Part shown: one piece after another, positions 16,504-49,729 of the stretch
Layout: each line of letters begins with the position of its first letter
Position numbering within the stretch: the stretch's first letter is position 1
Assembly (NCBI GenBank): GCA_937873695.1
Contig: CALMYL010000006.1
Location: forward strand, 124,001-188,000
DNA: 64,000 nucleotides
Direction: 5' to 3'
From: an uncultured Ignavibacteria bacterium
GTDB taxonomy: Bacteria > Bacteroidota > Ignavibacteria > Tepidaquicellales > OLB5
Notes under the pieces: generated by a model
What the model was told of the DNA's origin: nothing
What the model saw: only the letters and a program-made list of their open reading frames with translations
The model's database searches: none
Position numbers and translations under genes: made by a program

Positions 16504-16514
16504 AGAAAGTTATT

Positions 16515-16775: not shown

Positions 16776-16778
16776 AAT

Positions 16779-22131: not shown

Positions 22132-22205
22132 TACGAAACGTGTTATCCTGCTGAATTTATTGTTTCCTCAGGTAAATGATATATTTGTATTCATTTTTGT
22201 TTTTT

Positions 22206-32983: not shown

Positions 32984-34435
32984 TTATTTCAGACTTAATC
33001 TTTCAACTGTTTTGGCTTTAAGAATTTGCTCTTTAAGCCACCCACTTGCATAACAGGGAGACTCCAGCAAATCAAATTCCTTTTCGAGTGTAGATAGTCT
33101 GTAATCATATTCATGCTTTTCGGGTAATAACAATTGAATCATTGTTAACTTTTTGGTAAAATCAATAAACTGACTGTATGCTGATATAAAATGACTTCCG
33201 ATATTTTTGTGTGACTTCAAATATTTTTTTACAACCTCACATATCTGCAGAACCGACTCATGATCACTACCCATATATGCTATTCGGCACTCAATCAATT
33301 TTGCCTCGCAGTAAAAAATGTAATCATCAATGGAAATTTTGGAAAGTAGAAGCCTTGCGCTTTTATACTCATGTTTAAAGAACAGGATCTTTGCCGTAAA
33401 CATGTTATATACATTATCGGGATATTCATATTTAATATGACCTTTCGTATTATGCATGTAATCAAGTGCCCAGTCGAAATTCCCAAGACCTATTGCTGCT
33501 TCAATTATTATTTTCAGGTCTACATATCCTATTCCTTTATCTGAAATAATTCCCTTATTTTGAAGGATTGCACCAATTTCTAACACTTTTTCCGAAAGAT
33601 CATATCTGCCGGAATTAATGAATTTTGATATTATATTTAACAGTGTCAGTAATAGCCCGTTTTCGTTTATTTTAAATAAACTTTCAGTCTTCAGCAGTAC
33701 CTCAAGATACTCATCGTATAAACTTTGTTCAAATCCGTTTCTTTCCATACGTATTGCAAGATAGCGAAGAAAAATTTCCGGATGTTCATTCTGCAGCACA
33801 GTTTTATTAATTTCGATATATTCAAAAAGACTTTTTTCAAAGGTCCTGAATTCAGTTGTATCCATGTTGGCTGTATATTGAAGTGAATCCATTCTCTGTA
33901 AAAGAAACAGTTTCATTGCAGCAAAATACTTATCAAGGTAATTGTTAATTATTATACTAAAGTCATTTTTAGAATCATCCAATGATGTATCTTTGAAATC
34001 ATAAATTTTGGAATGAAGTACAGTTAGCTCAAGGTAATATTCTTCATCTTTATCAAAGTTCTCCTTAATAAAGCCATCAGTATCAACTGCCAGTTTAAGA
34101 TAACCACTAATATCTTTTTTCTTCCTTAACCATTGAAGTTCCATCTTTCTTTTTGTGAGTTCATTTTTATCATACTCGGTCTGCGCGGTAAATGCCCGGT
34201 ATAATTTCATAAATTCCGAAACCAGCTTTCTGAACTTTAGCTCTTTAGAGGCAGCGGGGCTGCCGAAGAATTTTTCGGCTATCAGCTCCCTGGATAAATT
34301 ATTGCCGTGTAAGGCAAGAATATCATACAGTTTAATGAATCTGGGCTCAGAGTTAAAATAAGGCGAGCGGAGAAAGTCGCCGAATTTTTTGAACTCCCTG
34401 CGGTTAAGCAAAAGGTGAATTTTAGTAATGTTCAT
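32984..34435 (-). CDS. unknown cytoplasmic helical-repeat protein
   Basis: The 483-residue protein has no signal peptide. It begins 'LLNRREFKKFGDFLRSPYFNS', a start shared, from memory, with a family of uncharacterised Bacteroidota proteins found in several copies per genome. The remainder is alpha-helical with TPR-like spacing ('LLNIISKFINSGRYDLSEKVLEIG', 'FFKHEYKSARLLL' as shorter pieces of repeats). Function unknown. It diverges from the operon at 34584 over 148 bp. Confidence 0.75.
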   Translation of the reverse strand: MNITKIHLLLNRREFKKFGDFLRSPYFNSEPRFIKLYDILALHGNNLSRELIAEKFFGSPAASKELKFRKLVSEFMKLYRAFTAQTEYDKNELTKRKMELQWLRKKKDISGYLKLAVDTDGFIKENFDKDEEYYLELTVLHSKIYDFKDTSLDDSKNDFSIIINNYLDKYFAAMKLFLLQRMDSLQYTANMDTTEFRTFEKSLFEYIEINKTVLQNEHPEIFLRYLAIRMERNGFEQSLYDEYLEVLLKTESLFKINENGLLLTLLNIISKFINSGRYDLSEKVLEIGAILQNKGIISDKGIGYVDLKIIIEAAIGLGNFDWALDYMHNTKGHIKYEYPDNVYNMFTAKILFFKHEYKSARLLLSKISIDDYIFYCEAKLIECRIAYMGSDHESVLQICEVVKKYLKSHKNIGSHFISAYSQFIDFTKKLTMIQLLLPEKHEYDYRLSTLEKEFDLLESPCYASGWLKEQILKAKTVERLSLK

Positions 34436-34583
34436 AATTTAGTTCACATATTTTCATAAATATAGCTAAAAATTATCAATAATTAAGGTTTATAACGTGT
34501 TATAATGTTCACTTTCAAACAAATATTTCTTTGTTTAGCAGGATCATATCATATAACTTTACATACACTTTAAAACACAGTAA

Positions 34584-34979
34584 ATGGCATTAAGAAAACG
34601 TAAGACCTCATCTAAAGTAACAAAGGCTGAAACCAGGATTGCAGCGATGGATAAAATTGATAATGAAAAAAACACCATAATGAATTATGGGGGAGAGGAT
34701 AATCCGCTTACAACCGGTGAGATGAGGGCACAGGCAGAATTATGCAGGATGCTGGTAAATGAATATAATTTCATACTTGGCGAAGCGGATAAAAAATCAG
34801 CGGAAATTAAGCAGGCAGAAGAAAAGCTTGGTGATATGTTCACCCGGGTACTTGCCGGCGGAAAAAGCATCTTCGGGGTAGATAGCGACGAAGTAACCGC
34901 GCTTGGCGGCACAAAGAAAAGCGAGAGAAGAAAAACAAAAATGATTAAAACTATTAAACCAACAAGAAAAAATATCTAA
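34584..34979 (+). CDS. small conserved basic protein with an AGGT-K-SER motif (unknown function)
   Basis: The 131-residue protein is a helical, charged molecule without an export signal. It ends in 'DSDEVTALGGTKKSERRK' and a basic tail. A similar 'AGGTRKSER' ending occurs in small uncharacterised proteins of cyanobacteria and Bacteroidota that I recall. It is the first gene of a probable five-gene operon (next gene 20 nt away) and the ending could bind nucleic acid or a membrane. Function unknown. Confidence 0.65.
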   Translation: MALRKRKTSSKVTKAETRIAAMDKIDNEKNTIMNYGGEDNPLTTGEMRAQAELCRMLVNEYNFILGEADKKSAEIKQAEEKLGDMFTRVLAGGKSIFGVDSDEVTALGGTKKSERRKTKMIKTIKPTRKNI

Positions 34980-34999
34980 TTTAAAATTAAATAACTGAA

Positions 35000-35638
35000 A
35001 TGGCAGACGAACAAAACAAAAATCAGGAAAAACCAGCAAACAACTCTAATAATCATTTTGAAAGAATGCTTACAGGGTATGTTGAATTTTTCAGATCATA
35101 TACTGATAGACTGAAAAACAACTATTCTAATGAACAAGAAGATGAACTTGAATTCATTGAAATTCAGGGAATAAACTTAATAAACGCCTCAGGAAATTTA
35201 AAAAATGAAATGATGAAGATTTATAATGAAGTGGATTCAGAATCTAAGTATCACATCGATAATCATATTAATAATACAGGAATTAATCAAACATTATTAA
35301 GAATAAATTCAGGGTTAAAAAAAGGAGTATTTGGTAGCATAATGGATAAAATTAAGGTTATTTCCGAATTTGTAAAAAAAGTTATTCAATCCATTAATGA
35401 ATACTTAAAGGATAATGATTTATTCCCGAAAATTCAGAAAATCATTGGATTTATTGTAGATCTTTTTGAGCTTCTTGATAACATTTTTGAAGCATTGGGC
35501 AAAATGCTTGATGGACTAACCGATTTTAGCGGGGCCAAAATATCAAGCAATGCATACGGGAACCTATCATATTTAAGAATGGCCGAAGATCACTTCTTAA
35601 GTACCCATACTAAATGGCAGTCATTAAAAAAGGGTTAA
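35000..35638 (+). CDS. unknown cytoplasmic alpha-helical protein
   Basis: The 212-residue protein has no signal peptide. It has a polar N-terminus (NQEKPANNSNN), several amphipathic helices, and a segment of mixed hydrophobic and charged residues around 118-172 ('IIGFIVDLFELLDNIFEALG') that could insert in or lie on a membrane. I recognise no domain. It is 20 nt after the previous gene and 54 nt before the exported operon members. Confidence 0.6.
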   Translation: MADEQNKNQEKPANNSNNHFERMLTGYVEFFRSYTDRLKNNYSNEQEDELEFIEIQGINLINASGNLKNEMMKIYNEVDSESKYHIDNHINNTGINQTLLRINSGLKKGVFGSIMDKIKVISEFVKKVIQSINEYLKDNDLFPKIQKIIGFIVDLFELLDNIFEALGKMLDGLTDFSGAKISSNAYGNLSYLRMAEDHFLSTHTKWQSLKKG

Positions 35639-35692
35639 ATTTAAAAAATAGTAATTACGAATATTCGGAATTAAAAGAAAGATAACAATAAT

Positions 35693-37525
35693 ATGAAAAC
35701 AATCAAAACACTGGCTGCGATATTTATTTTATTGGCAGTGATAACAAGTCTGCATGCAGGCGATAAAGTAAGAATTATACTTAGTCAGCCGCCGCCAAAT
35801 AAATTAGGTGTTGGTGATATGTGGAACCTTACTCTTGAAAACACAACCAATAGTGATCTCAAGATCTATTTAACCGGAACGGCAATAGAGGAAAAGGATG
35901 GGCTTATCATTGAAGGTAAATCCAAAGTATTCACTATTAAGCCGGGAAAAACCAACTACAAGTACAACGATTTTTCCGGAGCTGAAGTAAAGTACAATAA
36001 TGGGAAGTACAAAGAAATAATTCTGCGTACAGGTAATGCCCCTGAAGGAAGCTATACGATTTGCGTAACGGCACTGGAGGAAAACGGAGAAATTGCGGGA
36101 ATTGAGAACTGCATAATGCAGCAGGTTCGGCAATTGGAAAGTATATCTCTCGTTTCACCCGAGGATAAAGCCGAGATCGATCCGGATACACTTCCCGGGC
36201 TCGTGTTTACGTGGACCCCATTGCCGGGTGCAAAGGAATATATACTTAAAATTGTTGAGATTAAGGGCGAGCAATCACCGGAAGTTGCTTTCAGAACCAA
36301 CCAGCCGATATTTGAAAAAGAACTGAGAACACCTTCATATCAAGGCGATCCGATTCATGGTGTTGATGTAAAACTTGGCATGAATTACGCATGGCAGGTT
36401 TCATGCGGTGATATTCAGAGTGAAGTCTGGTCATTTAAAATGATGAACGCACAGTACCAGGTTATTGTTGATACTGTAATTATCAGGTGCGATTCATTAA
36501 CTCCTTTTAAATATAATTATCAGGTTAAAGTAACCAACAATAATCCAAACGGCAGCCCCGGTCCTTTAAATCCTGCAAAAGTATCAATTGTTTCAATATC
36601 GCCTCCGTTATTTGCAGGTACTCCAAGTGTTCCCACAACACCATCTCCTGCCGGAGGAATACCTTACTTGGGGAGTCACATAATTACAGGCTCTGCTTCT
36701 TTTTCATCTTTTCCATCCTTCATAGATTTTACTGTTAAAATGGAAGATAATACCAATCCCATTGGATATAATGCTACAACGGTATATCGTGTAAATACGC
36801 CTGTGTGCAATAAAAATTGCTGCGAGAACTTTAAACGCACTGTGACAAATATTTCAATAATTCCTTCAAGTACCCCGGGAGCATACCAGTTTAATGCTAC
36901 ATTAACAGCCGGCCCGAACAAGATCAAAAAGATTGAGGCAAATATGAATTATTTTGAATGGAAACTGACTAATGAACTCTGTAAAAAGTGTAATAATTCC
37001 AGTTTATATTGGGGGAACGTAAACAGCGTTCCGTCCCCAACATTGCCGGGTTTTTCCGGAGTATCATTAACTCCAAGCGGATCAGTAAATTCATATAGTC
37101 ATGAAGTAATATGGACCGGAAACGGAAGTAATATGAATAGCGGGGTTCCTCTGAACATGTATCTGATATTCCCGTTAAAAGCAAATATATCATGCTGCTC
37201 TGATACAATAAAGTTCTGTATTAATTTTTCATTTACCGATACAACATGTGCAACCTGTGATACATCCATTTGCTATACGTATATCAGAAATGTAACTACC
37301 GGAATGGGTAAAATTTACGATGAAAGAATCCAGAAAATGAAAATTGACGAAGAATTAATTGAGGATGAAAATAAAGATAATGAAGAATACAAAAGAAGTT
37401 ATAAAGAACAGGAAGAAATGATGAAGAAAAAACAATTTGAAGGTGAGAGCCAGGGTATCAGGAAAAAAGAAACAAAATCAAAAAGAGCAGAACGTCAAAA
37501 TTCTATGAAAGCAGGTAATAAATAA
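35693..37525 (+). CDS. exported modular protein: N-domain shared with the barrel protein, Cys-rich domain shared with the next gene
   Basis: The 610-residue protein has a signal peptide (1-22). Next is an Ig-like N-domain starting 'KVRIILSQPPP', which is clearly related to the N-domain of the 39302 protein. A fibronectin-III-like domain follows ('LVFTWTPLPGAKEYILKI'...'YAWQVSC'). A Cys-rich domain ('CCENFKRTVTN'...'FTDTTCATCDTSICY') is shared with the 37525 protein. The last 75 residues are a highly charged helical tail rich in Glu and Lys. There is no T9SS sorting domain. The stop shares a base with the next start (TAATG). Probably periplasmic or surface-exposed. Function unknown. Confidence 0.7.
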   Translation: MKTIKTLAAIFILLAVITSLHAGDKVRIILSQPPPNKLGVGDMWNLTLENTTNSDLKIYLTGTAIEEKDGLIIEGKSKVFTIKPGKTNYKYNDFSGAEVKYNNGKYKEIILRTGNAPEGSYTICVTALEENGEIAGIENCIMQQVRQLESISLVSPEDKAEIDPDTLPGLVFTWTPLPGAKEYILKIVEIKGEQSPEVAFRTNQPIFEKELRTPSYQGDPIHGVDVKLGMNYAWQVSCGDIQSEVWSFKMMNAQYQVIVDTVIIRCDSLTPFKYNYQVKVTNNNPNGSPGPLNPAKVSIVSISPPLFAGTPSVPTTPSPAGGIPYLGSHIITGSASFSSFPSFIDFTVKMEDNTNPIGYNATTVYRVNTPVCNKNCCENFKRTVTNISIIPSSTPGAYQFNATLTAGPNKIKKIEANMNYFEWKLTNELCKKCNNSSLYWGNVNSVPSPTLPGFSGVSLTPSGSVNSYSHEVIWTGNGSNMNSGVPLNMYLIFPLKANISCCSDTIKFCINFSFTDTTCATCDTSICYTYIRNVTTGMGKIYDERIQKMKIDEELIEDENKDNEEYKRSYKEQEEMMKKKQFEGESQGIRKKETKSKRAERQNSMKAGNK

Positions 37526-39294
37526 TGAAAAAATTAATAATAAGAGCAGCAGCTTTTTTAATATTTAATCTTTTTTTTAGTTCAATTCTGTTATCAGGAC
37601 CGGTTTTACTTGTTGGTGTAGATACGGAATGCGGGTTCAGAAACAATCCTGCAGCAGATCAGTTAGGAGGACATGGTACGATTAATCAGTGGGCTGCGAT
37701 ATATAATAACATGTTCACCAATGTAACAAACGGCGGTTCAGGTATACTTGTAATTGGAGGCGGCAAAGACCAGGTAACACCATTTGATATGGCAACACAA
37801 TTCTGGACATTAATAGGCGCTGCAACCGGTCAAACAATAACTTTTGTAAATACTGCGCCAAATATTACAGCGCAGTCTTTCAGTGGTTTTAAAATGATTG
37901 CGGTTGTTAACGCATATTGTCCAACCGGAACAACGGGAGGTTTAACACAATCTGAACTGGACGCAATTAATGCCAGGGGTAACGAGGTTGCTGCTTTTGT
38001 CTGCGGCGGCGGAGCACTTTTTGGTTCTACATGCACACCTCTTACAAATCAATTTGGTTATGTTGCTGCATTAGGTTCAATTACTGTCACAACTACTGGG
38101 TCGTGGGGTTCACCAACTTATGATCTGTCTCCGGCAGGCTCAACGTTCGGTTTTCCGTTAACACCTCCAACCCAGGCAATTAACGGTCCATGGCATAATA
38201 CTTTTGCCTCATTTCCGGGCTTTCTTCAGGTTCTGGCAGTTATTGGGAGTGGGTCAGATTCATCAAAAGTTCTTGCAATCGGAGGAATGAATGTGTGTCC
38301 GCCTCCGCCAAATTCTCAAAATGATGATTGCTGTAAGGGATTCATCAGGAACATTACAAATACTTCAGTTACAGCCCAAAGCCACCCGATCTTAAATTTT
38401 CAGGTAGCGGCCACGATGGAAGCGGGACCCAACAGGATCAGAAAAGTTGAAGTATCCATGGTCTCCATATCATTAAAGAACAGTAATATAGATTGCCAGC
38501 AATGTTATAATGCACCGTTCAGATATGGTTCATTGTTTCCGGTTACTTTGCCTTTTGCTGTTGCCAGTATTAGCGGACTTACCGGACCTGTTGTCACACT
38601 TCCGCCGGCAACATTTTTAACGATGAATTCAAATCCGCGGAGTATAACCTGGGGCAGCATCAGCGGACCGGGAATAAATATGATGGGTGTAAATAAAAGA
38701 ACTATCAAGCTTTCGTTAAGCCTGCCTGATGCAAGTCCATTAAACTGCTGCGGAGATACAATTGATTTCTGCCTGCGGTATAAATTCACAGATACAACTT
38801 GTGCTGTATGTGATACATTGGTTTGCTATAAGGTAGTAAGAAAAGGCGGTACCGGTACTTTAACAGATTCAAAAAAAATGTCAGAAAGCGTAAAAGAAGT
38901 TGAAGGAATGTTCAAAAAAATGGAAAAACCAAGGGGCGAAGGTTACCCGGGGACGATATTTAACGGAATATTCAACCCTATGGATACTCTTTATTATTGT
39001 AAATCCACTGAAAAGTCATTCTTCCATATTGATATCCTTAACAGTACGGCGGTTACCTTATCATTATATGACAGGTTCGGTAATTTCATAAAAGTACTCA
39101 AAAACGTAGATCTGAAACCGGACAGGTACAATTTTGATCTGACTGAATTCGATATGCCTGAGGGTGAATACATTTGTAAAATACAAACCAATGACGGAAT
39201 CATTGAAAAAGAATTTTACTGGAAAGATGTTCCTTCATGCCCCTGTAAAAAGTACAAAGAACAATTGGAAAACTCCGTTAAGGATAACAAATAG
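37525..39294 (+). CDS. exported protein: GATase-like N-domain, Cys-rich domain, sorting-like C-domain
   Basis: The 589-residue protein has a signal peptide (1-25). Its domain of about 240 residues includes 'AAFVCGGGALFGS', which resembles the nucleophile elbow of class I glutamine amidotransferase/ThuA-like folds. The Cys-rich domain shared with the 35693 protein follows ('CCKGFIRNITN'...'FTDTTCAVCDTLVCY'). The C-terminal beta domain ('VTLSLYDRFGNFIKVL'...'GEYICKIQTNDG') looks like a divergent T9SS type A domain but lacks the usual ending. It is the middle gene of the three exported proteins. Enzymatic activity is not established. Confidence 0.65.
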   Translation: MKKLIIRAAAFLIFNLFFSSILLSGPVLLVGVDTECGFRNNPAADQLGGHGTINQWAAIYNNMFTNVTNGGSGILVIGGGKDQVTPFDMATQFWTLIGAATGQTITFVNTAPNITAQSFSGFKMIAVVNAYCPTGTTGGLTQSELDAINARGNEVAAFVCGGGALFGSTCTPLTNQFGYVAALGSITVTTTGSWGSPTYDLSPAGSTFGFPLTPPTQAINGPWHNTFASFPGFLQVLAVIGSGSDSSKVLAIGGMNVCPPPPNSQNDDCCKGFIRNITNTSVTAQSHPILNFQVAATMEAGPNRIRKVEVSMVSISLKNSNIDCQQCYNAPFRYGSLFPVTLPFAVASISGLTGPVVTLPPATFLTMNSNPRSITWGSISGPGINMMGVNKRTIKLSLSLPDASPLNCCGDTIDFCLRYKFTDTTCAVCDTLVCYKVVRKGGTGTLTDSKKMSESVKEVEGMFKKMEKPRGEGYPGTIFNGIFNPMDTLYYCKSTEKSFFHIDILNSTAVTLSLYDRFGNFIKVLKNVDLKPDRYNFDLTEFDMPEGEYICKIQTNDGIIEKEFYWKDVPSCPCKKYKEQLENSVKDNK

Positions 39295-39301
39295 AACATA
39301 A

Positions 39302-41893
39302 ATGCAAAAATTAAAATATATTCTTCTGATCATTATCGCGCTCTTAGCGCAAAACATATTTTCTCAATCCGGCAAGATTGTTATCATACTCAAAAAGCCG
39401 CCGCCGTTCTTGTTTTATACTGAGGATATGTTTAAACTGACATTGATTAATCCAACTAATGAGACTTACCGTGTTAACCTGCATGGCAGATCGACTGAGA
39501 CTATTATCGGACTGGTTATTGATGCTTCCTGTAATACGTTCGATCTCCCGCCGGGGACAAAAATCGTACAGACAAGCGATGTTGGAAAAGTTACAATAAA
39601 TGAGAAAAATGAGAAATACAAAGATGTAATTACCAGGATGGGACAATTACCAAGCGGAAATTACGATATCTGCGTTGAAGTTGTAAATGCAGCAACGGGC
39701 GAAATACTAGGCACAGATTGTATTACACAGGAAGTAATGTTGGTCTCACAGGTAGCGCTTGTATATCCTGCTGATGCATTGAAATTGCAGACTGAAAACA
39801 AGTATCCTGTGTTTACCTGGTTGCCGCCGGTGCCAATTGCAAAAGGACAATCAGTAACTTATAAACTGAAAATAGTGGATATATACGGGATGCAATCCGC
39901 CTACGACGCAATGCAATCAAATCCGCTCTATTTTAGTAACAGCAACATTAGGTCAACAAGTTACCAATATCCTGTTTCCGCAAGGCCGTTTAGTGCCGGA
40001 AGCAGCTATGCTTGGCAGGTTGAGGCTTATTTAAATGGAAATTTGCTTTCATCCAGCGAAATATACGATTTCACATATGGTGAGATGAAACAGGTTACAA
40101 AAACAAAGGAGCTTGCTACAATGAAAAAGTATTGGGGTGCCAACCTCGATGGAAATTTTGACGGCAATATGGGCGGCACAAATCTAGCAGGGAAGAAGAA
40201 AACATTCATGTTCTCGTTTAACAGTGAGCTCTTTGGTGAATCTGCCAACCGATCCGGTACCGGTTCAGATAAAGAACCAAGGTATGGGTATCTGAATTTG
40301 ACCCCATCAGTTAGTCTTTACGGCTTGCCAATATCTACATCGTTCCTGTTCTCAAGCGAGAATTCAGCATCGAGGCAGAATATCAATTCTGCAGGATTAA
40401 ATCTGGACGTTTCGACAATAAAAGAATTTATTTCAGAAAGAATCGATCAGGAGAAAAATAAAATTCTCAGTGAAAACAATAAAAATGAATCAGAATTAAG
40501 CGAAAAACAGAAAGATAAGCTTGAAAATGACGCGAAGTATAAGGTAATGTCGAAGATGAGTCCCGCATTGAAGCTAATATCAAGCTTCAAAACTCTTGGT
40601 ATTGGTACAACTTACCCTTCATATACTCCATTTACGATGCAGGGTGTACCGGTGTCGGGTCTGAATGTTGAGTTCAATCCTGGCTGGTTTTATATTGCCG
40701 CTACAGCGCAAAAGAATCAGAAACCGATAGATAATACATCATTCCGCCGGGACCTTTATTCAGGCAGGATAGGATACGGACAATCTGATAAGAGTCATAT
40801 ATACCTTACAGGTCTGTATGCCAACGATAAGGCAGGCTCAATTTTGGTTGATTCATCTAATCAGCTGTTAACGCCAAACTCAAACTATCTGTTTGGCATA
40901 CAGGGTAAGCTTAACCTGTTCAGGGATAAGCTCTCATTCGAAGCGGAAGCTGTTGGTTCAATGCTTACCAGGGATAACCGGGATGCTGATCTTGAGAATA
41001 AATCTATACCTTCATTTGTAAAGAATATGTTCCATCCCAAGATATCAAGCCAGATAGATTATTCATATACAATAAAATCAGTATTTGATAATCAAAAATC
41101 AAATACAAAGGTAACAGCATCTCTAAAAATGGTTGGTCCCGGGTTCGTAACACTTGGCAATCCAACCTTAAGAGGTGATAAGATGGAAGTCGAAACTAAA
41201 ATATCGCAGAAGTTCGTAAATAAACAGGTATCTGTAACAGCATCATTAAAATGGTTCAGGGATAACTTAATCAGTTCAAAGCGTTATACAACAAACACAA
41301 CTATTCCTAATCTAACAGTTAATCTAAACTTCAAAGGATATCCATATGTAATGCTTGCCTATATGCCGAATTTTATGACCAATGATGCCACTGACCCGGT
41401 TTATAAATTTGATTACAAAAATCACCTTTTAATGGTTAATACAGGTCATAGCATTCGCTTTGGTAAGATGAATTTATCATCCAATCTTTCATACATGTTC
41501 AACCAGGCAACCTCGCTTGATACTGCAAGCGGCTATACATCAAACAGCTTTACATTAAGCGAAGGACTATCATTTGACATTCCCTTAAGCCTTTCGGCAA
41601 GTGTAAATGTGATACATTCTGATTATGTGAATGATTACAGCAGGATACTATCATTTGATGCATTTGCCAGTTATACACTCGAAGATGTATGGACTAATAT
41701 GATCGGATTTTCAACCGGTGTTGAAAAAGATAAGAACAGGAAACGGATGTTCTATTTAACCACATCTTTCAGTATTATCCAAAACGTAAATTTTGAAATA
41801 CGGACTGAGAAGAATCTATTTACTGATTGGGCCACAAGCTCGAACAACTTTGATGAGTTCCTGATAAGAGGTACTGTCACTACTAATTGGTAG
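39302..41893 (+). CDS. predicted outer-membrane beta-barrel with periplasmic Ig/FnIII domains
   Basis: The 863-residue protein has a signal peptide (1-21). An N-domain 'KIVIILKKPPP' homologous to that of the 35693 protein comes next, then a FnIII-like domain ('FTWLPPVPIAKGQ'...'SYAWQVEAY'). About 560 residues of alternating polar/hydrophobic strands follow, ending in an aromatic Trp as outer-membrane barrels of Bacteroidota do. A charged helical insertion (about 375-415) interrupts the early barrel. It is the last gene of the operon. No TonB box or plug was seen. It may be an export channel or adhesin anchor for the two upstream exported proteins. Confidence 0.7.
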   Translation: MQKLKYILLIIIALLAQNIFSQSGKIVIILKKPPPFLFYTEDMFKLTLINPTNETYRVNLHGRSTETIIGLVIDASCNTFDLPPGTKIVQTSDVGKVTINEKNEKYKDVITRMGQLPSGNYDICVEVVNAATGEILGTDCITQEVMLVSQVALVYPADALKLQTENKYPVFTWLPPVPIAKGQSVTYKLKIVDIYGMQSAYDAMQSNPLYFSNSNIRSTSYQYPVSARPFSAGSSYAWQVEAYLNGNLLSSSEIYDFTYGEMKQVTKTKELATMKKYWGANLDGNFDGNMGGTNLAGKKKTFMFSFNSELFGESANRSGTGSDKEPRYGYLNLTPSVSLYGLPISTSFLFSSENSASRQNINSAGLNLDVSTIKEFISERIDQEKNKILSENNKNESELSEKQKDKLENDAKYKVMSKMSPALKLISSFKTLGIGTTYPSYTPFTMQGVPVSGLNVEFNPGWFYIAATAQKNQKPIDNTSFRRDLYSGRIGYGQSDKSHIYLTGLYANDKAGSILVDSSNQLLTPNSNYLFGIQGKLNLFRDKLSFEAEAVGSMLTRDNRDADLENKSIPSFVKNMFHPKISSQIDYSYTIKSVFDNQKSNTKVTASLKMVGPGFVTLGNPTLRGDKMEVETKISQKFVNKQVSVTASLKWFRDNLISSKRYTTNTTIPNLTVNLNFKGYPYVMLAYMPNFMTNDATDPVYKFDYKNHLLMVNTGHSIRFGKMNLSSNLSYMFNQATSLDTASGYTSNSFTLSEGLSFDIPLSLSASVNVIHSDYVNDYSRILSFDAFASYTLEDVWTNMIGFSTGVEKDKNRKRMFYLTTSFSIIQNVNFEIRTEKNLFTDWATSSNNFDEFLIRGTVTTNW

Positions 41894-41983: not shown

Positions 41984-42209
41984 TTATGTGTAAACTATCT
42001 ACAGTGAAATAAGTACTTGCATTTTTTGCAGTTAAGTTAGTTGCCTTCTTGTTTATTATTCGTCTGTCAGTGTTTGTCAGTTCTTAAGAATAATAAAAGT
42101 ATTTAATATTTCATAATTAATTCGCATTTTTGCAGTGTTTTGGTAGTACGTCTGATGTTTCATCAGGCGGCCTAAATTTAGATTTTTAAAGTATTGTTTT
42201 TACAGTTTT

Positions 42210-42364
42210 CGGGGTGTGGCTCAGCCCGGTAGAGCGCCTGGTTCGGGATGATGTAGAAACCGCAATTTTAGCTCAAAATCAACAAAAACCCTTTAAATTC
42301 TTCTCCCAATTTGTTCATTTTTAGCCTGTTTTTGAGGGGTGTTACTGACACTTTTACTGACATT
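42210..42364 (+). repeat. copy C of the tRNA-Pro half repeat, best preserved
   Basis: The first 39 bp are the tRNA-Pro(CGG) 5' half ending in the anticodon loop TTCGGGA, differing from copy B at one base. The conserved tail follows to about 42364. On the minus strand the tail reads MSVKVSVTPLKNRLKMNK and a few more codons before a stop, vaguely like the N-terminus of Bacteroidota tyrosine recombinases. The following 42365-42564 stretch is AT-rich with nothing recognised. Confidence 0.85.
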
Positions 42365-42564: not shown

Positions 42565-45500
42565 TTAATGCACCATAAACTTTGCCATGGCTGATTTATG
42601 CAGCTTACCATTCTTGTTCAGATATACCTTTATCATAACAAATATTATTGGTGTTACAAAAAGTACATGAATTGCTGAAGTAACAACTCCGCCTATCATT
42701 GGAACTGCAATTGGTTTTGCAAGGTCAGCCCCCGTGCCGGTTGCCCACATGATCGGGATCAGCCCTATTAAATTCACAGCTACAGTCATAAGTTTAGGTC
42801 TAAGCCTTAATACAGCGCCATCTTTGGTTGCCTGAATAATATCCTGTGTCGTCACAATATCATTTTTCTCAATCATTTTCTTATCAAGCGCTTCATGGAG
42901 GTAAATTACCATTACAACACCAGTTTCAACAGCTAGTCCGTATAAGGCAATAAATCCAACCCACACAGCTACAGAGAAGTTATAATCGAGTACTGCCATT
43001 AGATAGACTCCGCCTATAAGTGCAAAGGGAACAGATAGCATAACAAGAATTGACTCCAGGAAATTCTTAAATACCATAAAAAGCATAACAAATATTATCA
43101 AAAAAACTATCGGCATAACTATTTCAAGGCGTTCTTTCGCCCTTATCTGGTTCTCCCACTGACCGCTCCACGAATAATAATAGCCTTTTGGTAAATTTGG
43201 AGCAAATTCTTTATCCAAAACGTCCTTTGCTTCATTCACAAAACCGCCCATGTCCCGTCCTCTAACATTGAGAAATACTATTGAACGAAGCATATTATTC
43301 TCGCTTGATATCATCGGAGGTCCTGAAGTTACTTTAATATCAGCAAGCTCACCAAGCGGTATCTGGAATACACTGCTTCCGGAATTATTTGATACTGAAG
43401 TACCGCTCATTTCTGAGCCTGCATCCTGCTGCATTGATGAACCGGATGAGCCTACGGTTACCAGAATATTTTTCAGCTTATCAATATCTTCCCTGTAATC
43501 CCTGAAATACCTTACACGTATAGGGAATCTTCTTCTGCCTTCAACCGTATTGGAAATATTTTCACCGCCAATTGCTGTTTCAATAACATCCTGCACATCG
43601 CCAACATTCAAACCATACCTTGAAATCGCATCACGCTTGATATCTATATCAATATATTTTCCGCCTTGAGTTCTTTCCGCAAATACATCGGCAGCACCAT
43701 TGACTTTCTTTACAATCTCCTCAGCTTCTATTGCTAATCTTTCGAGGGTATCAAGGTTATCACCAAATATTTTAATCCCAAGGTCAGTTCTTACACCGGT
43801 TGAAAGCATATTTATCCTGTTGATAATTGGCTGAGTCCACGCATTACCAACACCCGGTATCTGCATTTTTGAGTTAAGCTCTGCAATGATATCATTTTTT
43901 GTTAATCCTTCCCGCCATTCAGATTTATCTTTCAGGATAATGATCGTTTCTATCATATTCATTGGCGCAGGATCAGTCGGTGTATCTGCCCTGCCAACCT
44001 TACCAAGTACGTGTGCTACTTCAGGTACCGATTTAATTATCTTATCCTGCATCTGCATAATCCTTTTTGCCTCTGTGATTGATACATTAGGAAGGGTTGT
44101 TGGCATAAACAGAAGGCTTCCTTCATCCAGTGATGGCATAAACTCAGAGCCGCGGTTCATAACTAACGGAATGGTTATCAATAAGGCTAATACATTTATG
44201 GCAAGAGTTGTTTTGCGGTATTTAAGCGCAAGATTCAGTACCGGTTCATATAACATTCTGAAGAATTTTGAAACGGGATTTTTGTGTTCAGGATAAAACT
44301 TACCCCTCATGAATAATGTCATAAGCATCGGGACAAGTGTTATAGTAATAATTGCAGAACCTGCAAGTGCGAAAGTCTTTGTAAATGCCAGAGGGTGGAA
44401 AAGCTTGCCTTCCTGTCCTTCAAGCATAAAAACGGGAAGGAATGATACAACTATAATGCCGATCGAAAAGAATATTGCCCTGCCAACCTGTTTGGCTGAT
44501 CTAATTGATATTTCGGTATAGTCTATAGTCTCTCCCCGCTCAGCAGCCATGGCGATATTCCTGTAAGCATTTTCAACCATTACAATCGATGAATCCACAA
44601 GTACACCAATTGAAATTATGAGACCCCCAAGACTCATAATGTTAGATGTAATGTTAAACTGTTTCATCAATATAAATGCAATCAATACAGATACAGGTAT
44701 TTCAATAATTATCCTTATAGCGCTTCGCCAGTGAAAGAGAAATATCAGCACTATCAGGCTTACAACAATTGCTTCTTCAATTAATGAATGCTTTAAAGTA
44801 TCTATAGCATTATCAATTAATGTACTTCTATCGTATGATGTTTCTATCTTTACACCTTCGGGCAGACCCTTTTCCAGTTCTTTGAGCTTTTCCTTTACAC
44901 GTTCAATGACAACTGAAGCATTTTCACCATAACGCATAACTATGATTCCACCAACAACTTCACCTTCACCGTTCATATCAAGCAGACCGCGTCTGGTATC
45001 ACCGCCAATCTGAACAGTGCCCAGATCTTTTATTCTAACAGGTACGCCAAACTTTGTACCTCTAATAGTAATTTCTTCAATATCTTCAGGAGTTTGGATG
45101 TAGCCTTTACCCCTTATAAAAAATTCCTTATCGCTTGATTCCAGATTTTTTCCGCCAACATCTTTATTACTGTTCCTGATCGAGTTCACAACATCATTTA
45201 TTCCAATACCATATGATGAAAGTTTCGCAGGATCAATATCAACCTGGTACTGCTTTATAAATCCGCCAATAGAAGCGACCTCAGCAACACCTTCAACCGA
45301 GGTTAATTGGTATTTCAGGAAATAATCCTGCAATGCTCTTAGCTCACCAAGATCATACTTATCGCTTTTTAGGTGGTACCAGAATACATGTCCCACACCG
45401 GTTCCATCGGGACCCATAACAGGCGTTACTCCCTGTGGCAATGTACTTTGTACCTGGTTCAGTTTTTCAAGTACACGGCTTCTTGCCCAGTAAATTTCTG

Positions 45501-45801
45501 CGTTATCTTCAAATATCACATAAATAAAGCTCATACCAAACATTGATTGTGAGCGAACAGCCCTTACTTTTGGAATGCCCTGCAGGTTTTGAGTTAAAGG
45601 GTATGTTATCTGGTCTTCAATTATCTGCGGACTTCTTCCCATCCACTCAGTAAACACAATAACCTGATTTTCTGAAAGATCAGGAATTGCATCAACAGGT
45701 GTGTTATAAACTGACCAAATTCCAAAACCTGCTATCACAAGGTATGCGATCAATATCAGGAAACGATTTCGCGCGGAAAATTCTATTATTTTTTCAATCA
45801 T
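42565..45801 (-). CDS. cusA: CusA-type heavy-metal RND efflux pump
   Basis: The 1078-residue inner-membrane RND protein belongs to the heavy-metal efflux family. 'VGFIALYGLAVETGVVMVIYL' contains the VETGVV segment, and 'IISIGVLVDSSIVMVENA' lacks the DFG.I.DGAV motif of CzcA, so a monovalent (Cu+/Ag+) substrate is more likely. It should work with the adaptor and TolC-like protein at 48338 and 49730. It is last in a minus-strand run beginning near 51.1 kb. Confidence 0.9.
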   Translation of the reverse strand: MIEKIIEFSARNRFLILIAYLVIAGFGIWSVYNTPVDAIPDLSENQVIVFTEWMGRSPQIIEDQITYPLTQNLQGIPKVRAVRSQSMFGMSFIYVIFEDNAEIYWARSRVLEKLNQVQSTLPQGVTPVMGPDGTGVGHVFWYHLKSDKYDLGELRALQDYFLKYQLTSVEGVAEVASIGGFIKQYQVDIDPAKLSSYGIGINDVVNSIRNSNKDVGGKNLESSDKEFFIRGKGYIQTPEDIEEITIRGTKFGVPVRIKDLGTVQIGGDTRRGLLDMNGEGEVVGGIIVMRYGENASVVIERVKEKLKELEKGLPEGVKIETSYDRSTLIDNAIDTLKHSLIEEAIVVSLIVLIFLFHWRSAIRIIIEIPVSVLIAFILMKQFNITSNIMSLGGLIISIGVLVDSSIVMVENAYRNIAMAAERGETIDYTEISIRSAKQVGRAIFFSIGIIVVSFLPVFMLEGQEGKLFHPLAFTKTFALAGSAIITITLVPMLMTLFMRGKFYPEHKNPVSKFFRMLYEPVLNLALKYRKTTLAINVLALLITIPLVMNRGSEFMPSLDEGSLLFMPTTLPNVSITEAKRIMQMQDKIIKSVPEVAHVLGKVGRADTPTDPAPMNMIETIIILKDKSEWREGLTKNDIIAELNSKMQIPGVGNAWTQPIINRINMLSTGVRTDLGIKIFGDNLDTLERLAIEAEEIVKKVNGAADVFAERTQGGKYIDIDIKRDAISRYGLNVGDVQDVIETAIGGENISNTVEGRRRFPIRVRYFRDYREDIDKLKNILVTVGSSGSSMQQDAGSEMSGTSVSNNSGSSVFQIPLGELADIKVTSGPPMISSENNMLRSIVFLNVRGRDMGGFVNEAKDVLDKEFAPNLPKGYYYSWSGQWENQIRAKERLEIVMPIVFLIIFVMLFMVFKNFLESILVMLSVPFALIGGVYLMAVLDYNFSVAVWVGFIALYGLAVETGVVMVIYLHEALDKKMIEKNDIVTTQDIIQATKDGAVLRLRPKLMTVAVNLIGLIPIMWATGTGADLAKPIAVPMIGGVVTSAIHVLFVTPIIFVMIKVYLNKNGKLHKSAMAKFMVH

Positions 45802-45816
45802 GCTTGTAAATCAAAT

Positions 45817-46383
45817 TTATTTATTTGTATTTATTAACATTATTACAGCCATCATAGCTACCATTACACCACCCATTATGATCCAAAAGCCAGTTGAACC
45901 CATACCCATCATTCCCATCATCCCTTTATCGTGCTCCATATCAGCTTGATTGTTATTTTTGACATTTGTATTGAAACTAAAGCTTAAATTATTAACAGCA
46001 TTATCCTCACTTATCTGGTTGAATGTGAATTTAAGAACATGATTTCCTTCTTTTTTGAATTTTATCTGCGCAGAATATTTACCATTAAGCAGTATCATTC
46101 TATTTACAGCCAGCGTGCTATCAATATTCAATATGCTTAAGCTAACATTTGCAGTATCAACCTGAATGGAAGAAGTTAATTTCAAACTTAGAATATAAGA
46201 GGAGTCTTTAATAAACTCATCAGTTTCCGATAGAACTTCTGCTGTATAATGAGAGTTTTGGGTTACAAACAACACATTAATATTTTCACTATTATTTATA
46301 CTGTGTTCATGCTGTGCAAAAACACAATTAAATGTTGTAAAAAGAATAGTTATTAAAAACGATTTTGACATATAGTTATCCAT
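45817..46383 (-). CDS. exported protein with Ig-like domain, Met-rich linker and C-terminal membrane helix
   Basis: The 188-residue protein has a signal peptide ending 'NCVFAQ', a short His stretch (HEHS), and a beta-rich domain like those of FixH/YtkA-type proteins. A methionine-rich linker 'MMGMMGMG' is followed by a membrane helix (about 160-185). Met clusters bind Cu(I), so it may hand copper to the adjacent CusA. The start may be the ATG four codons later. It overlaps the GDCCVxC gene by 8 nt. Confidence 0.65.
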   Translation of the reverse strand: MDNYMSKSFLITILFTTFNCVFAQHEHSINNSENINVLFVTQNSHYTAEVLSETDEFIKDSSYILSLKLTSSIQVDTANVSLSILNIDSTLAVNRMILLNGKYSAQIKFKKEGNHVLKFTFNQISEDNAVNNLSFSFNTNVKNNNQADMEHDKGMMGMMGMGSTGFWIIMGGVMVAMMAVIMLINTNK

Positions 46384-46582
46384 TTTCTATTTTTTTTTGC
46401 ATTGGCGGACACTTTATACTACCAAAAGAACAAAACACGCAGCAATCATCATTATTTGGTTTAAGCAACGTATGGCAATTTTCACATTCATAAAAATGAA
46501 GGCATGAGTTTTCCGGCAATATTTCTTCTTTTGAACTTAAACAATATGGACAGGTGATAACTGAATATATATTTTTATTCAT
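46376..46582 (-). CDS. GDCCVxC-type small metal-binding protein
   Basis: The 68-residue protein has 'CPYCLSSK', 'CENCHTLL', and 'DDCCVFCSFGSIKCPPMQ' near the end, which is the GDCCVxC family hallmark. Some relatives are selenoproteins, but here every position is a normal Cys codon. It probably binds soft metals. It starts within the stop of a 42-codon gene (ATGA overlap) and ends within the next gene, so the small genes are tightly coupled. Confidence 0.8.
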   Translation of the reverse strand: MNKNIYSVITCPYCLSSKEEILPENSCLHFYECENCHTLLKPNNDDCCVFCSFGSIKCPPMQKKIENG

Positions 46583-46707
46583 TTTTCCTTTTTTAGAAAT
46601 TTTATCTGTTCTATTTGCAGTATGAATCTTTCTTTGAATCTTTTAAAAACATATAATCCAAATGATATAAAGAATAATAAGACTGATTTGCCTACTAGTA
46701 CTTCCAT
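46579..46707 (-). CDS. 42-residue single-helix membrane protein
   Basis: The frame MEVLVGKSVLLFFISFGL continues to 'YVFKRFKERFILQIEQ' and a basic end. It has one membrane helix then an amphipathic charged tail. It starts one base after the CopZ-like gene stop and overlaps the GDCCVxC start by 4 nt (ATGA), a spacing that argues strongly for translation. Function unknown. Confidence 0.6.
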   Translation of the reverse strand: MEVLVGKSVLLFFISFGLYVFKRFKERFILQIEQIKFLKKEK

Positions 46708-46708
46708 A

Positions 46709-46915
46709 TCAACTATTATTTATTACGTCAAAACCACTTTCTGTAATAGCATCTAAGATTTCTTTTCTTTCAATTTTCTCAGAGTTGTATTCAACATATA
46801 ATGAGCCAAGTTTCACTTCATACTTATCAACCGGAAGTTTTTTTATTACTTCATCAATTGATTTTATGCAGTGGTCACAGGTCATTCCTGCAATATTAAT
46901 AGTTTCGGTTATCAT
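46709..46915 (-). CDS. HMA-domain copper chaperone (CopZ-like)
   Basis: The 68-residue protein consists of one HMA domain with the metal-binding 'GMTCDHC' (Cys13/Cys16) and no export signal. It should carry Cu(I) or a related soft metal in the cytoplasm. It sits in a series of small metal-binding genes downstream of the CusB-like adaptor. Confidence 0.9.
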   Translation of the reverse strand: MITETINIAGMTCDHCIKSIDEVIKKLPVDKYEVKLGSLYVEYNSEKIERKEILDAITESGFDVINNS

Positions 46916-46938
46916 CTCAATAAATTTTAAATTTATAA

Positions 46939-47259
46939 TTAATGTTTATGCATACAGCCTTTGCATCCTTTATGCTCCATAGCTTTATCATTTTTTACAT
47001 CGCCTTTAACATCTGATTTCTCGCTGTTTTCTTTTAACTCAAGATCCATACCGCATTTTGGACATGAGCCCGGTTTATCTGAAATGACATCCGGATGCAT
47101 TGGGCAGGTGTATGTTTTGGTGGTTGTTGAATCAGTAACAGAGTTACCTGCTGATATAGTATTTTTTTCAAACGAATAAGCAGCGTTATATGAATAAAAT
47201 CCAATTAACGATATGATTGCAGCTGTAAGTAAAAATAGTTTTGTTTTATTGTTTTTCAT
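46939..47259 (-). CDS. membrane-anchored heavy-metal-binding domain protein
   Basis: The 106-residue protein has an N-terminal membrane/signal segment (8-27) and the YHS-like heavy-metal-binding unit '[18 protein letters not shown]', ending in 'KCGMDL'. A C-terminal tail '[11 protein letters not shown]' is rich in Cys and His. The same unit appears fused to the adaptor at 48338. It is likely a periplasmic metal scavenger feeding the Cus pump. Confidence 0.82.
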
Positions 47260-47296
47260 GATATATTATTTTTTTATGTTTTTGAGTTGCCTTTTA

Positions 47297-47656
47297 TTAT
47301 TCAGGAACCTTACAGCAATCATCAAGCTTATCATAAGCTTCCTTATTTGCTATTTTATTGTTTGCATTATATCCTGACTTGCTGATCACACTTTCTATTG
47401 CGGCTAAAGTAGTTTTAGTATCATCAAAAACTACAATGGCTTTTTTTTCGTTAACATCAACACTAATACTGATTACTCCTTCAACTTTATTGACTGCTTT
47501 TTCAATTGTTTTTTTGCACATACCGCACTGAATTGTTGGCAGTAAAATCTCTTCTGTTCTGTTATCATAAGCCGTTTCAGCTTTTAAGCTGAAAGAAAAG
47601 AATAACAACATGAGAAGTAAAAGACTCTGATATTTTAAGATCATTTTCGTTTTCAT
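47297..47656 (-). CDS. exported HMA-domain protein
   Basis: The 119-residue protein has a signal peptide (about 1-26), an HMA domain with 'CGMCKKT' (Cys44/47), and a C-terminal 'LDDCCKVPE'. The same architecture, including the CC ending, is found at 63206, so the two are paralogues from the two pump systems. It is probably a periplasmic metal carrier. Confidence 0.85.
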   Translation of the reverse strand: MKTKMILKYQSLLLLMLLFFSFSLKAETAYDNRTEEILLPTIQCGMCKKTIEKAVNKVEGVISISVDVNEKKAIVVFDDTKTTLAAIESVISKSGYNANNKIANKEAYDKLDDCCKVPE

Positions 47657-47697
47657 TTTTTATATTAATTTATTTTTTAATTAAATTTTATTTAATG

Positions 47698-48291
47698 TTA
47701 TTTGCAGTCTGCCGGTAACTTTGCAATAGCATCTGCCCCGGCTTTTGTATCATTTGCGTCAAAACCTGCATCTGAGATGACTTTCTCAACATTTGATTTA
47801 GTTGTTTTAGATTTATCTAAGTACATATGAATTACTTTGTTCACAATATCAATATGATATTCTACAACACCTTTATCGCTGCTTAGTGCAGTTTCTATTA
47901 ATCTTTCGCATTGATCCGATTTAATTACAGATAATTTCACTTCAAAATGAATCAGGTCTTTTTTACCTGAATATTTGGTTTCTAAAGCTTCATGTTCTTC
48001 ACTCATTTTTTTGTTATACTCAGATTTCGGATTCAGTTTCATCTTGCAAATTGGACATTTAACAGCCGGGTCATCAGTTTGCTGTGCCGGATGCATTGGA
48101 CAGAAGTATTTTCCGTCTTTAACCATCTTAGCTGCATCAGTATTGTTAACTTTTTGGTCATCGTTTTTCATTTCTGTTGACTGTTTGTTGTCTTTTACAT
48201 CATTTTCTTTCTTATTACAGCCAAACACTAAAACAACTACAAGCACCATAAACACTATTGAAATACTGTTTAAAAATAATTTTTTATTCAT
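47698..48291 (-). CDS. lipoprotein with heavy-metal-binding and HMA-like domains
   Basis: The 197-residue protein has a lipobox 'VFGC' (Cys25), a metal-binding unit 'FCPMHPAQQTDDPAVKCPIC', and a C-terminal HMA-like fold in which the usual CxxC is changed ('SDQCERLIE') but the final 'PADCK' is kept. I place the start at 48291. A strong GGGAGGAG ribosome-binding site lies 9-16 nt upstream, and the longer frame would translate it. It is 46 nt after the adaptor gene. Confidence 0.78.
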   Translation of the reverse strand: MNKKLFLNSISIVFMVLVVVLVFGCNKKENDVKDNKQSTEMKNDDQKVNNTDAAKMVKDGKYFCPMHPAQQTDDPAVKCPICKMKLNPKSEYNKKMSEEHEALETKYSGKKDLIHFEVKLSVIKSDQCERLIETALSSDKGVVEYHIDIVNKVIHMYLDKSKTTKSNVEKVISDAGFDANDTKAGADAIAKLPADCK

Positions 48292-48337
48292 TGTTAATTG
48301 CTCCTCCCGCATTTTTGCGGTTTTTATTTTTTTAAAA

Positions 48338-49711
48338 TTAATGTTTATGTTCTGTTTCAGTTTTTTTATCTTTCATATCTTTCAGAATATCCTGGTTAGG
48401 GTTAATTTTTAATTCATCATTGTTTTCTTTTTTGGGATTATCACTATGATTTTCGTGCCCGGATGTAAATCCTTTCTGTATCTGTGTTTCGCTGTCTATC
48501 AGGAAGCCGCCTGATGTTACCACAAGGTCTCCTTCGGTTAATCCTGATGTAATTGCGTAAAATCCATCCTGCTCATATCCTATTTGTACTTCCTTAGGCT
48601 CATACACACCTTTTTCTTTTTCTATATAAACATAGTTATGTTCACCTGTGCGTATTACAGCGTTTTTGGGAACACCAATTGACTGCGTTACGTATGTATT
48701 GATCTTTACTTTAAGATACATATCAGGCTTTAACTTCATATCTTTATTTGATACGTCAATACGGACTTCAAGCGTTCTGGACTCGGGATTAAAAACAGGA
48801 TTTACGAAATTTATCTTAGCCCTCATAACTTCATCAGGGTAAGCATTAGAATAAATTTCGGCGGTCTGCCCGCTTTTGATATACTGCATATCGGCTTCAT
48901 ATACATTTGCAATAACCCAGACCGAAGACAGATCAGCAACATCATAAATATCCTCACCTGCCATTGCCCAGTGACCAACATGAACATATTTTTTAGTTAC
49001 AATCCCTGAATACTTTGAATACTGTATTGTTGTAGTTTTAACATTACGCGATCTTTCAAGTTCTTCAATTTGTCCGCGAGTCATTTCCCATAAGAGGAGC
49101 CTTTCCCTGGAAGAATTCACAAGGCTTTGCGCCTGGTCAATTGCCAGCCTGTTGCCGCTTGTTTTAACCTGGTTAAAGTTATCCAGCGCTAATAAATATT
49201 CCTTTTGTGTTGAAACAAGCTCAGGTGAATAAATTTCAAGTACTTTCTGACCTTTTCTTACCATCTCACCTTCAAATGATACGAACATATTCACAATTTT
49301 CCCCGAAACAGCAGTTGATATGTGAGCAAATTTCGTTTCATTTATCTTTACATAACCGTTGAATGTCTTCTCACCCTGAAACTGCATGGTTTTAACCCGC
49401 TCGGTCTGAACATTTGCAAGCACCTGCTGTGATGGTGAGAGCTTTACAGAATTAATATTAGCTCCGCCAAGATCGTGATCAGATTGTTCTTCAGTATCAA
49501 CTTCACTTTTTTTAACCAGGTCCATTCCGCATATTGGACACTGTCCGGGTCTATCCTGAATAATTTGCGGATGCATCGGGCAGGTGTATATTTCTTTACC
49601 GGATGATTCCGTATTATTCTTTTGAATAAAGGTTATATAGCCCCAATATCCGCCTGCAACTACAATAACTGCAGCAAGTACACCTATTAATATTTTTATT
49701 GTTTTATTCAT
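48338..49711 (-). CDS. cusB: CusB-type periplasmic adaptor with heavy-metal-binding domain
   Basis: The 457-residue membrane-fusion protein has an N-terminal anchor (5-29) and a YHS-like unit 'YTCPMHPQIIQDRPGQCP' (42-59). Barrel-sandwich and coiled-coil hairpin regions follow ('QTERVKTMQ' to 'NVKTTTIQY'), and a His-rich tail ('HENHSD', 'TEHKH') ends the protein. It bridges CusA and the TolC-like channel. Order in the operon is cusC-cusB-small proteins-cusA. Confidence 0.9.
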   Translation of the reverse strand: MNKTIKILIGVLAAVIVVAGGYWGYITFIQKNNTESSGKEIYTCPMHPQIIQDRPGQCPICGMDLVKKSEVDTEEQSDHDLGGANINSVKLSPSQQVLANVQTERVKTMQFQGEKTFNGYVKINETKFAHISTAVSGKIVNMFVSFEGEMVRKGQKVLEIYSPELVSTQKEYLLALDNFNQVKTSGNRLAIDQAQSLVNSSRERLLLWEMTRGQIEELERSRNVKTTTIQYSKYSGIVTKKYVHVGHWAMAGEDIYDVADLSSVWVIANVYEADMQYIKSGQTAEIYSNAYPDEVMRAKINFVNPVFNPESRTLEVRIDVSNKDMKLKPDMYLKVKINTYVTQSIGVPKNAVIRTGEHNYVYIEKEKGVYEPKEVQIGYEQDGFYAITSGLTEGDLVVTSGGFLIDSETQIQKGFTSGHENHSDNPKKENNDELKINPNQDILKDMKDKKTETEHKH

Positions 49712-49729
49712 AATACTTAATTAAATACT

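What the first reader, a model, noticed from the sequence alone, without database searches (positions are those of the whole stretch)
34584..41893. Candidate undescribed envelope system: five-gene operon ending in an outer-membrane barrel
Five co-directional genes (gaps 20, 54, -1 and 7 nt) encode a small basic protein, a helical protein with a membrane-like segment, two large exported modular proteins and a barrel with periplasmic Ig/FnIII domains. None belongs to a system I recognise. The pairing of cytoplasmic helpers, exported partners and a dedicated barrel suggests a surface assembly or secretion pathway (inference).
Basis: partly seen in the sequence, partly recalled or inferred. Interest (0 to 1): 0.75.

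Follow-up and report, generated by a model that had tools for sequence, protein, structure and literature searches.

The report
Barrel-TANFOR outer-membrane module of Bacteroidota
The five genes are real, and inside them sits a conserved but undescribed pair found across the Bacteroidota: a very wide predicted outer-membrane pore and large exported TANFOR proteins, whose unknown export route this pore could explain.

Summary
The five-gene run (34584-41893) exists exactly as described, and no gene passes any curated family cut-off. It is not one five-part machine. P5 is an exported TANFOR-like double beta-sandwich joined to a predicted 26-strand barrel (AlphaFold pLDDT 82). P3 is a TANFOR-like partner. 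P4 looks like a type IX secretion (T9SS) cargo protein in a variable slot. P1 and P2 are not conserved with the barrel. In 345 genomes, 80 hold both barrel and TANFOR domain, 2 the barrel alone, 8 TANFOR alone and 255 neither. 98 of 111 barrels have a TANFOR domain within 20 kb, always on the same strand. Loci picked by the TANFOR profile alone gave 14 of 19 with an adjacent barrel, usually plus a fibronectin-III protein. Only 1 of 85 TANFOR partners carries the T9SS sorting domain. The best reading is a dedicated outer-membrane conduit or anchor for TANFOR proteins; transport itself is inferred. The long partners are conserved to near their C-termini, and none of ten had a toxin domain, so this is not a simple polymorphic-toxin locus. 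TANFOR proteins and a hypothesised T9SS route are published; I found no description of the barrel. In the window the module lies between att-like tRNA-Pro fragments.

The parts
34584..34979 (+). P1, 131-aa basic soluble protein; not part of the conserved core
   Evidence: Homologues in 6 of 99 relatives, typically beside the divergent 483-aa-type gene and upstream of secreted proteins
35000..35638 (+). P2, 212-aa protein, orphan
   Evidence: No family at a curated cut-off; profile found only itself in the loci searched
35693..37525 (+). P3, exported TANFOR-like partner protein (N-domain about 1-250, cysteine-rich C-domain 265-535, charged tail)
   Evidence: N-domain homologous to that of P5 (36% identity; E 2e-34); TANFOR profile hits the same domain in relatives; C-domain homologous to the middle of P4
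37525..39294 (+). P4, T9SS-cargo-like exported passenger with a sorting-domain-like stretch at residues 498-562 and 27 further residues
   Evidence: TIGR04183 E 0.015, 15.2 bits against cut-off 23; residues 500-562 match many secreted-protein C-termini; 90% identical copy in G005
39302..41893 (+). P5, outer-membrane barrel with fused N-terminal TANFOR-like domain
   Evidence: AlphaFold2 pLDDT 82.2, 26 strands between 302 and 862; fold nearest MtrB, Z 17.1; barrel family in 79 of 148 relatives
40211..41890 (+). Barrel domain used for profile A1
   Evidence: 37-sequence alignment
39320..40087 (+). TANFOR-like domain of P5
   Evidence: 58-sequence alignment, model pLDDT 94.4, tandem fibronectin-III-like sandwiches
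32984..34435 (-). Divergent 483-aa gene paired with P1
   Evidence: Same pairing in G002 (two loci), G009 and G010; also beside modules L039 and L044
29166..32447 (+). MalT/SARP-type regulator, syntenic upstream gene
   Evidence: NF003420 9.5e-42 and BTAD 7.5e-11; conserved with the module in G002/L033 and L046
25301..25465 (+). att-like repeat: 5' half of tRNA-Pro(CGG) plus about 110 bp, left of the module
   Evidence: 87% identical over 157 bp to the right copy
42191..42362 (+). att-like repeat: 5' half of tRNA-Pro(CGG), right of the module
   Evidence: Same; intact tRNA-Pro lies at this junction in G005

Best explanation
P3 and P5 are the window's version of an undescribed, phylum-wide outer-membrane module: a 26-strand barrel and one or more large exported TANFOR proteins, usually with a roughly 700-aa fibronectin-III protein. 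Proposed mechanism: Sec exports both proteins; the barrel is inserted in the outer membrane with its TANFOR domain (fused as in P5, or a separate short protein) on the periplasmic face; that domain recruits the TANFOR end of the partner, whose long beta-rich body passes through, or is held in, the wide barrel to reach the surface. P4 is a cargo protein of the separate type IX system that rides in the operon. Shown here: homology, linkage, co-occurrence, co-inheritance, predicted barrel, lack of T9SS sorting domains. Inferred: topology, docking, direction of transport, surface location.
For: Linkage: 98 of 111 strong barrels have a TANFOR domain within 20 kb, all on the same strand, 81 within 3 kb; genome table 80/2/8/255. 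The independent selection by TIGR02542 gave 14 of 19 loci with the barrel next door and usually a fibronectin-III protein. Co-inheritance: distance correlation 0.87 over 34 modules; in G515 and G575, which hold two modules each, each barrel and its partner have matching nearest relatives. The TANFOR domains fused to barrels and those of partners form separate lineages kept together in Ignavibacteria. Only 1 of 85 partners and 0 of 34 fibronectin-III proteins has a T9SS sorting domain, so another route or anchor is needed. Predicted 26-strand barrel whose folds rank MtrB (Z 17.1) and the FimD usher (13.6) on top, with SprA in the Foldseek list. 61 of 76 barrels end in F, W or Y, as outer-membrane proteins do.
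Against: No contact between barrel and partner was predicted or measured. SprA, the T9SS pore, is present in all 25 module genomes tested, so T9SS could export the partners by an unknown signal. The genome counts are not corrected for phylogeny, and about nine barrels contain a TANFOR domain themselves. The TANFOR match of P3 and P5 is indirect (no hit of TIGR02542 to them at E<=1). Some barrels in one family (f32) have no TANFOR domain nearby.
Confidence: 0.45

Rival explanations
1. Surface anchor, not exporter: TANFOR proteins leave the cell by T9SS and are then held at the surface by the barrel, as type B sorting-domain proteins are held by PorP/SprF-like barrels.
For: SprA in 25 of 25 module genomes; PorP-PG1035 and SprF-SprB complexes show this logic in the phylum (PMC9143113); sorting-domain proteins lie around many modules.
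Against: 84 of 85 partners lack the sorting domain; P5 matches no PorP family; a predicted 26-strand barrel is larger than an anchor needs (inference).
Confidence: 0.27
2. Periplasmic scaffold: the TANFOR proteins stay in the periplasm and form a stalk or bridge attached under the barrel, which imports or exports a small or lipidic substrate.
For: The fused TANFOR domain must face the periplasm by barrel topology (inference); large partners are conserved to near their C-termini in two classes, as machine parts would be.
Against: Length of partners varies from 600 to over 4000 aa, and the window's P4 slot holds exported cargo.
Confidence: 0.16
3. Polymorphic-toxin locus as described for TANFOR proteins of Bacteroidetes (PMC7073777), with the barrel as toxin exporter.
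For: TANFOR domain shared; variable passenger next to the barrel (P4 here, a peptidase C13-like protein in L034).
Against: No toxin domain in the last 400 residues of ten partners; class-wide conservation to near the C-terminus; no immunity-like gene beside P3-P5.
Confidence: 0.07
4. MtrB-like conduit for electrons, or an ordinary substrate-specific porin.
For: Best fold match is MtrB of the Mtr complex, Z 17.1, 439 residues aligned, rmsd 5.0.
Against: No CXXCH haem motif in P3, P4 or P5 and no cytochrome gene in the operon; sequence search of solved chains finds no MtrB.
Confidence: 0.04

Closest known systems
TANFOR-domain proteins (TIGR02542; Jana, Salomon and Bosis 2020, PMC7073777)
   Same: Exported proteins with an N-terminal TANFOR domain and fibronectin-III neighbours, no sorting domain on the TANFOR protein, in T9SS-bearing Bacteroidota; export route unknown.
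   Different: P3 and P5 fall below detection by the curated profile; barrel-linked partners have conserved C-termini without toxin domains; the passages read mention no barrel, and here one is fused to the domain in P5.
PorP/SprF barrels with type B sorting-domain adhesins (PMC9143113)
   Same: A dedicated outer-membrane barrel is encoded with, and bound to, an exported surface protein.
   Different: No PorP-family match for P5, about 26 predicted strands, and partners lack the sorting domain.
Chaperone-usher pilus ushers (FimD, PapC)
   Same: Wide barrel handling beta-sandwich proteins; fold similarity Z 13.6.
   Different: No usher profile match, no chaperone or pilin genes, different strand number (ushers have 24, from general knowledge).
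MtrB/PioB 26-strand barrels
   Same: Same predicted strand number and best fold score.
   Different: No cytochrome partner and no sequence match.
SprA, the T9SS translocon
   Same: Giant outer-membrane barrel of the same phylum, high in the Foldseek list.
   Different: SprA is a separate gene present in the same genomes, about 2200-2500 aa; P5 does not match its profile.

Membership tests
TANFOR family (TIGR02542) | Profile score over the curated cut-off of 67 bits | tested here: not met
   No hit for P3 or P5 at E<=1; relatives' homologous domains reach 33-47 bits, E down to 8.2e-12, still under the cut-off
TANFOR family (TIGR02542) | N-terminal domain homologous to TANFOR in an exported protein | tested here: met
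   Own N-domain profile hits L109 and L115 N-termini at 1e-35 and 4e-32, and TIGR02542 hits the same regions at 4.6e-8 and 3.4e-8; signal-like N-termini
TANFOR polymorphic toxins | Variable C-terminal toxin domain with a downstream immunity gene | tested here: not met
   P3 has no toxin match; ten relatives have none in their last 400 residues and share conserved C-termini
T9SS cargo, type A (TIGR04183) | C-terminal sorting domain over the cut-off (23 bits) | tested here: not met
   P4 15.2 bits, E 0.015; homology is nevertheless visible. P3 and P5 have none
PorP/SprF family | Match to the PorP profile in NCBIfam | tested here: not met
   No such match for P5 at E<=1
Chaperone-usher ushers | Usher profile match | tested here: not met
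   No Pfam match for P5 at E<=1
Chaperone-usher ushers | 24-strand barrel with plug, fed by chaperone-subunit complexes | tested here: inconclusive
   Fold Z 13.6 to FimD; a helical insert at 370-427 exists in P5 but its position was not examined; no chaperone gene in the operon
MtrB/PioB | Multihaem cytochrome partner (CXXCH motifs) | tested here: not met
   0 CXXCH in P3, P4, P5
Two-partner secretion (Omp85/TpsB) | POTRA domains and Omp85 barrel | tested here: not met
   No such Pfam match at E<=1; about 26 strands rather than 16

The most novel reading that the evidence does not exclude
A new outer-membrane protein-export system of the Bacteroidota, separate from T9SS: a 26-strand barrel with a TANFOR docking domain threads very large TANFOR proteins to the cell surface.
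Probability: 0.3. Interest if true: 0.85.

Novelty: new variant of a known kind. Interest (0 to 1): 0.6.

Why it matters
TANFOR proteins, including known antibacterial toxins, have no established way out of the cell; a 2020 study could only speculate about T9SS. The tight linkage of TANFOR proteins with one unnamed barrel family across about 29 families of the phylum (counted by hand) names a concrete candidate and makes the question testable by one gene deletion. If the barrel is an exporter it would be a further outer-membrane protein-secretion route; if an anchor, a second dedicated surface-display pair beside PorP/SprF.

Tried and rejected
Scanning genome contigs with diverse barrel alignments failed for lack of a conserved stretch; the single-protein scan gave six Ignavibacteria MAG loci only. 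TIGR02542 in the first phylum sample rang nowhere and worked only in samples centred on G387. I first suspected that the weak 800-930-aa barrel hits were LptD; reading them showed another barrel with N-terminal Ig-like domains. A viral fold search gave nothing useful. Solved-structure sequence searches with the barrel, TANFOR and long-partner alignments gave no convincing relatives. An operon promoter could not be supported: promoter-like and terminator-like sites are no more frequent than in shuffles. I considered placing the module inside a mobile island as its defining trait and did not: in G005 and G002 it simply abuts tRNA-Pro. In one search the rows from L200-L203 carry the label Bd although they are Ignavibacteria.

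Full report
Observation. The five ORFs and their spacing are as stated. None passes a curated Pfam, NCBIfam or PHROGs threshold. The window is contig C6:124001-188000 of a 3.78-Mb genome; named close relatives are Ignavibacteria MAGs.

Two of the five proteins share a domain. The first 260 residues of P3 and P5 are homologous, with a near-invariant cysteine pair (C118 and C134 of the P5 domain). The modelled domain (pLDDT 94.4) is a pair of fibronectin-III-like sandwiches. The middle of P4 is homologous to the C-terminal half of P3. P4 ends in a T9SS-sorting-like stretch that is below the curated cut-off (15.2 against 23 bits) but matches many secreted-protein C-termini in relatives; its first 250 residues recur, at 41-45% identity, in two proteins of G063 and G090, both of which appear by eye to end in sorting-like domains.

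What the shared domain is. Searching for the literature on such proteins led to TANFOR. TIGR02542 does not detect P3 or P5 directly, but it hits the same domain in barrel-linked proteins of other Bacteroidota at E 2.5e-8 to 4.6e-8 and 8.2e-12, and my domain profile hits L109 and L115 at 1e-35 and 4e-32. So P3 and P5 carry a divergent TANFOR domain by a two-step homology, not by membership under the curated cut-off.

What the barrel is. P5 was predicted with a 30-sequence alignment at mean pLDDT 82.2: residues 302-862 hold 26 strands by my count of the secondary-structure string, with a helical insert at 370-427 and a disordered linker at 262-299. The second-look aligner puts MtrB first (6r2q_B, Z 17.1, 439 residues, rmsd 5.0), then FimD (Z 13.6) among many other porins near Z 12-13; Foldseek also lists SprA. 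No sequence relative has a solved structure.

The conserved unit. In 40 relatives' loci the barrel sits beside large TANFOR proteins and often a roughly 700-aa fibronectin-III protein. In the 345-genome phylum sample, taking barrel hits at E<=1e-30 and TANFOR hits at E<=1e-20, 82 genomes have the barrel, 88 the TANFOR domain and 80 both. Of 111 barrels, 98 have a TANFOR domain within 20 kb and all 98 on the same strand. About nine of these barrels carry the domain in their own ORF (judged from ORF lengths); without them the figure is 89 of 102. The counts are not corrected for phylogeny. The reverse test started from TIGR02542 alone, in 247 genomes of the class of G387: 14 of the 19 TANFOR loci fetched have the barrel as neighbour, and one of the others is a short contig. 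Barrel and partner trees agree (Mantel r 0.87 over 34 modules, none of 2000 permutations as high). In the two genomes with two modules each (G515, G575), each barrel and its partner have matching nearest relatives, which species history alone would not give.

Two kinds of TANFOR domain. In the domain tree, 16 of 18 barrel-fused domains fall in one group of 17 rows (SH-aLRT 92; 15 of the rows at 95), while P3 falls in another group of 18 partner rows (98). The window's fused domain is therefore not a recent copy of P3.

Not the published toxins. Of 85 non-barrel TANFOR proteins in the loci, one has a T9SS sorting domain; none of 34 fibronectin-III proteins does. The long partners fall mostly into two classes conserved along nearly their whole length from Ignavibacteria to other classes of the phylum, with no Pfam toxin domain in the last 400 residues of ten examples. 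SprA is present in 25 of 25 module genomes, so T9SS is available but has no recognised signal on these proteins.

What is not core. P1 occurs in 6 of 99 relatives. Elsewhere it lies next to the divergent 483-aa-type gene and upstream of other secreted proteins. P2 has no relatives in the loci examined. P4 is whole only in G005; G013 has a peptidase C13-like protein in that slot (L034).

Mechanism. I prefer a dedicated conduit: a TANFOR domain at the periplasmic mouth of the barrel recruits the TANFOR end of the partner, and the partner body goes through or into the barrel. The shown steps are homology, linkage, co-inheritance and the predicted fold. Docking, direction and surface location are inference. 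The anchor model, by analogy with PorP-PG1035 and SprF-SprB (PMC9143113), is close behind.

Setting. The module lies between two direct repeats (87% over 157 bp) that begin with the 5' half of tRNA-Pro(CGG). The intact tRNA stands 60 kb downstream of the right repeat, just after a tyrosine integrase. In G005 the barrel gene is followed directly by the intact tRNA and the same downstream genes, which shows a roughly 60-kb insertion in the window's genome at that junction. The left repeat suggests that the module itself arrived at this tRNA; that is inference.

Limits. Absence of a description of the barrel in that library is not proof that none exists.

Noticed in passing
window 22199-22350, 25301-25465, 42191-42362; L209:15149-16368: Direct repeats made of the 5' half of tRNA-Pro(CGG); the intact tRNA lies 60 kb on, beside a tyrosine integrase. 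Successive stretches between the repeats carry T9SS-cargo proteins (22.2-25.3 kb) and the barrel module (25.3-42.2 kb), like an array of islands, none with its own integrase inside the window.
   Followed up: partly
L209:7636-10809 (-): A 1057-aa RNA polymerase beta-prime-like protein (Rpb1 domains 1-5) on the 60-kb integrated stretch, 4.3 kb before the integrase; no partner subunit was looked for.
   Followed up: no
window 32984-34979; L145, L147, L149: P1 family paired with a divergent 400-480-aa gene and placed just upstream of various secreted proteins; in L145 P1 overlaps the next gene by 4 nt. Looks like a mobile expression cassette for surface proteins.
   Followed up: partly
L101:3-2345, L102:576-2987: A second, weakly related barrel family of about 800-930 aa with N-terminal Ig-like domains, found in many of the 345 genomes at 60-77 bits; no TANFOR domain.
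   Followed up: partly
L034:9144-11585: Peptidase C13/caspase-like exported protein in the slot that P4 occupies in the window.
   Followed up: no
L173:8357-15130, L057:7934-13681: Two undescribed classes of 1500-2300-aa TANFOR proteins conserved along nearly their full length across the phylum (alignments A5 and A6).
   Followed up: partly
window 941-18990: NiFe-hydrogenase gene cluster (two large-subunit-type genes, small subunit, maturation protease, HypF, HypD, an AIR-synthase-type protein that fits HypE).
   Followed up: no
window 42565-51139: Heavy-metal RND efflux system (AcrB-family pump, HlyD/CusB-type adaptor, outer-membrane efflux protein) just outside the right repeat.
   Followed up: no
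window 25531-26858 (-): HipA-type kinase split into a C-terminal-domain gene and an N-terminal-domain gene, next to the left repeat.
   Followed up: no
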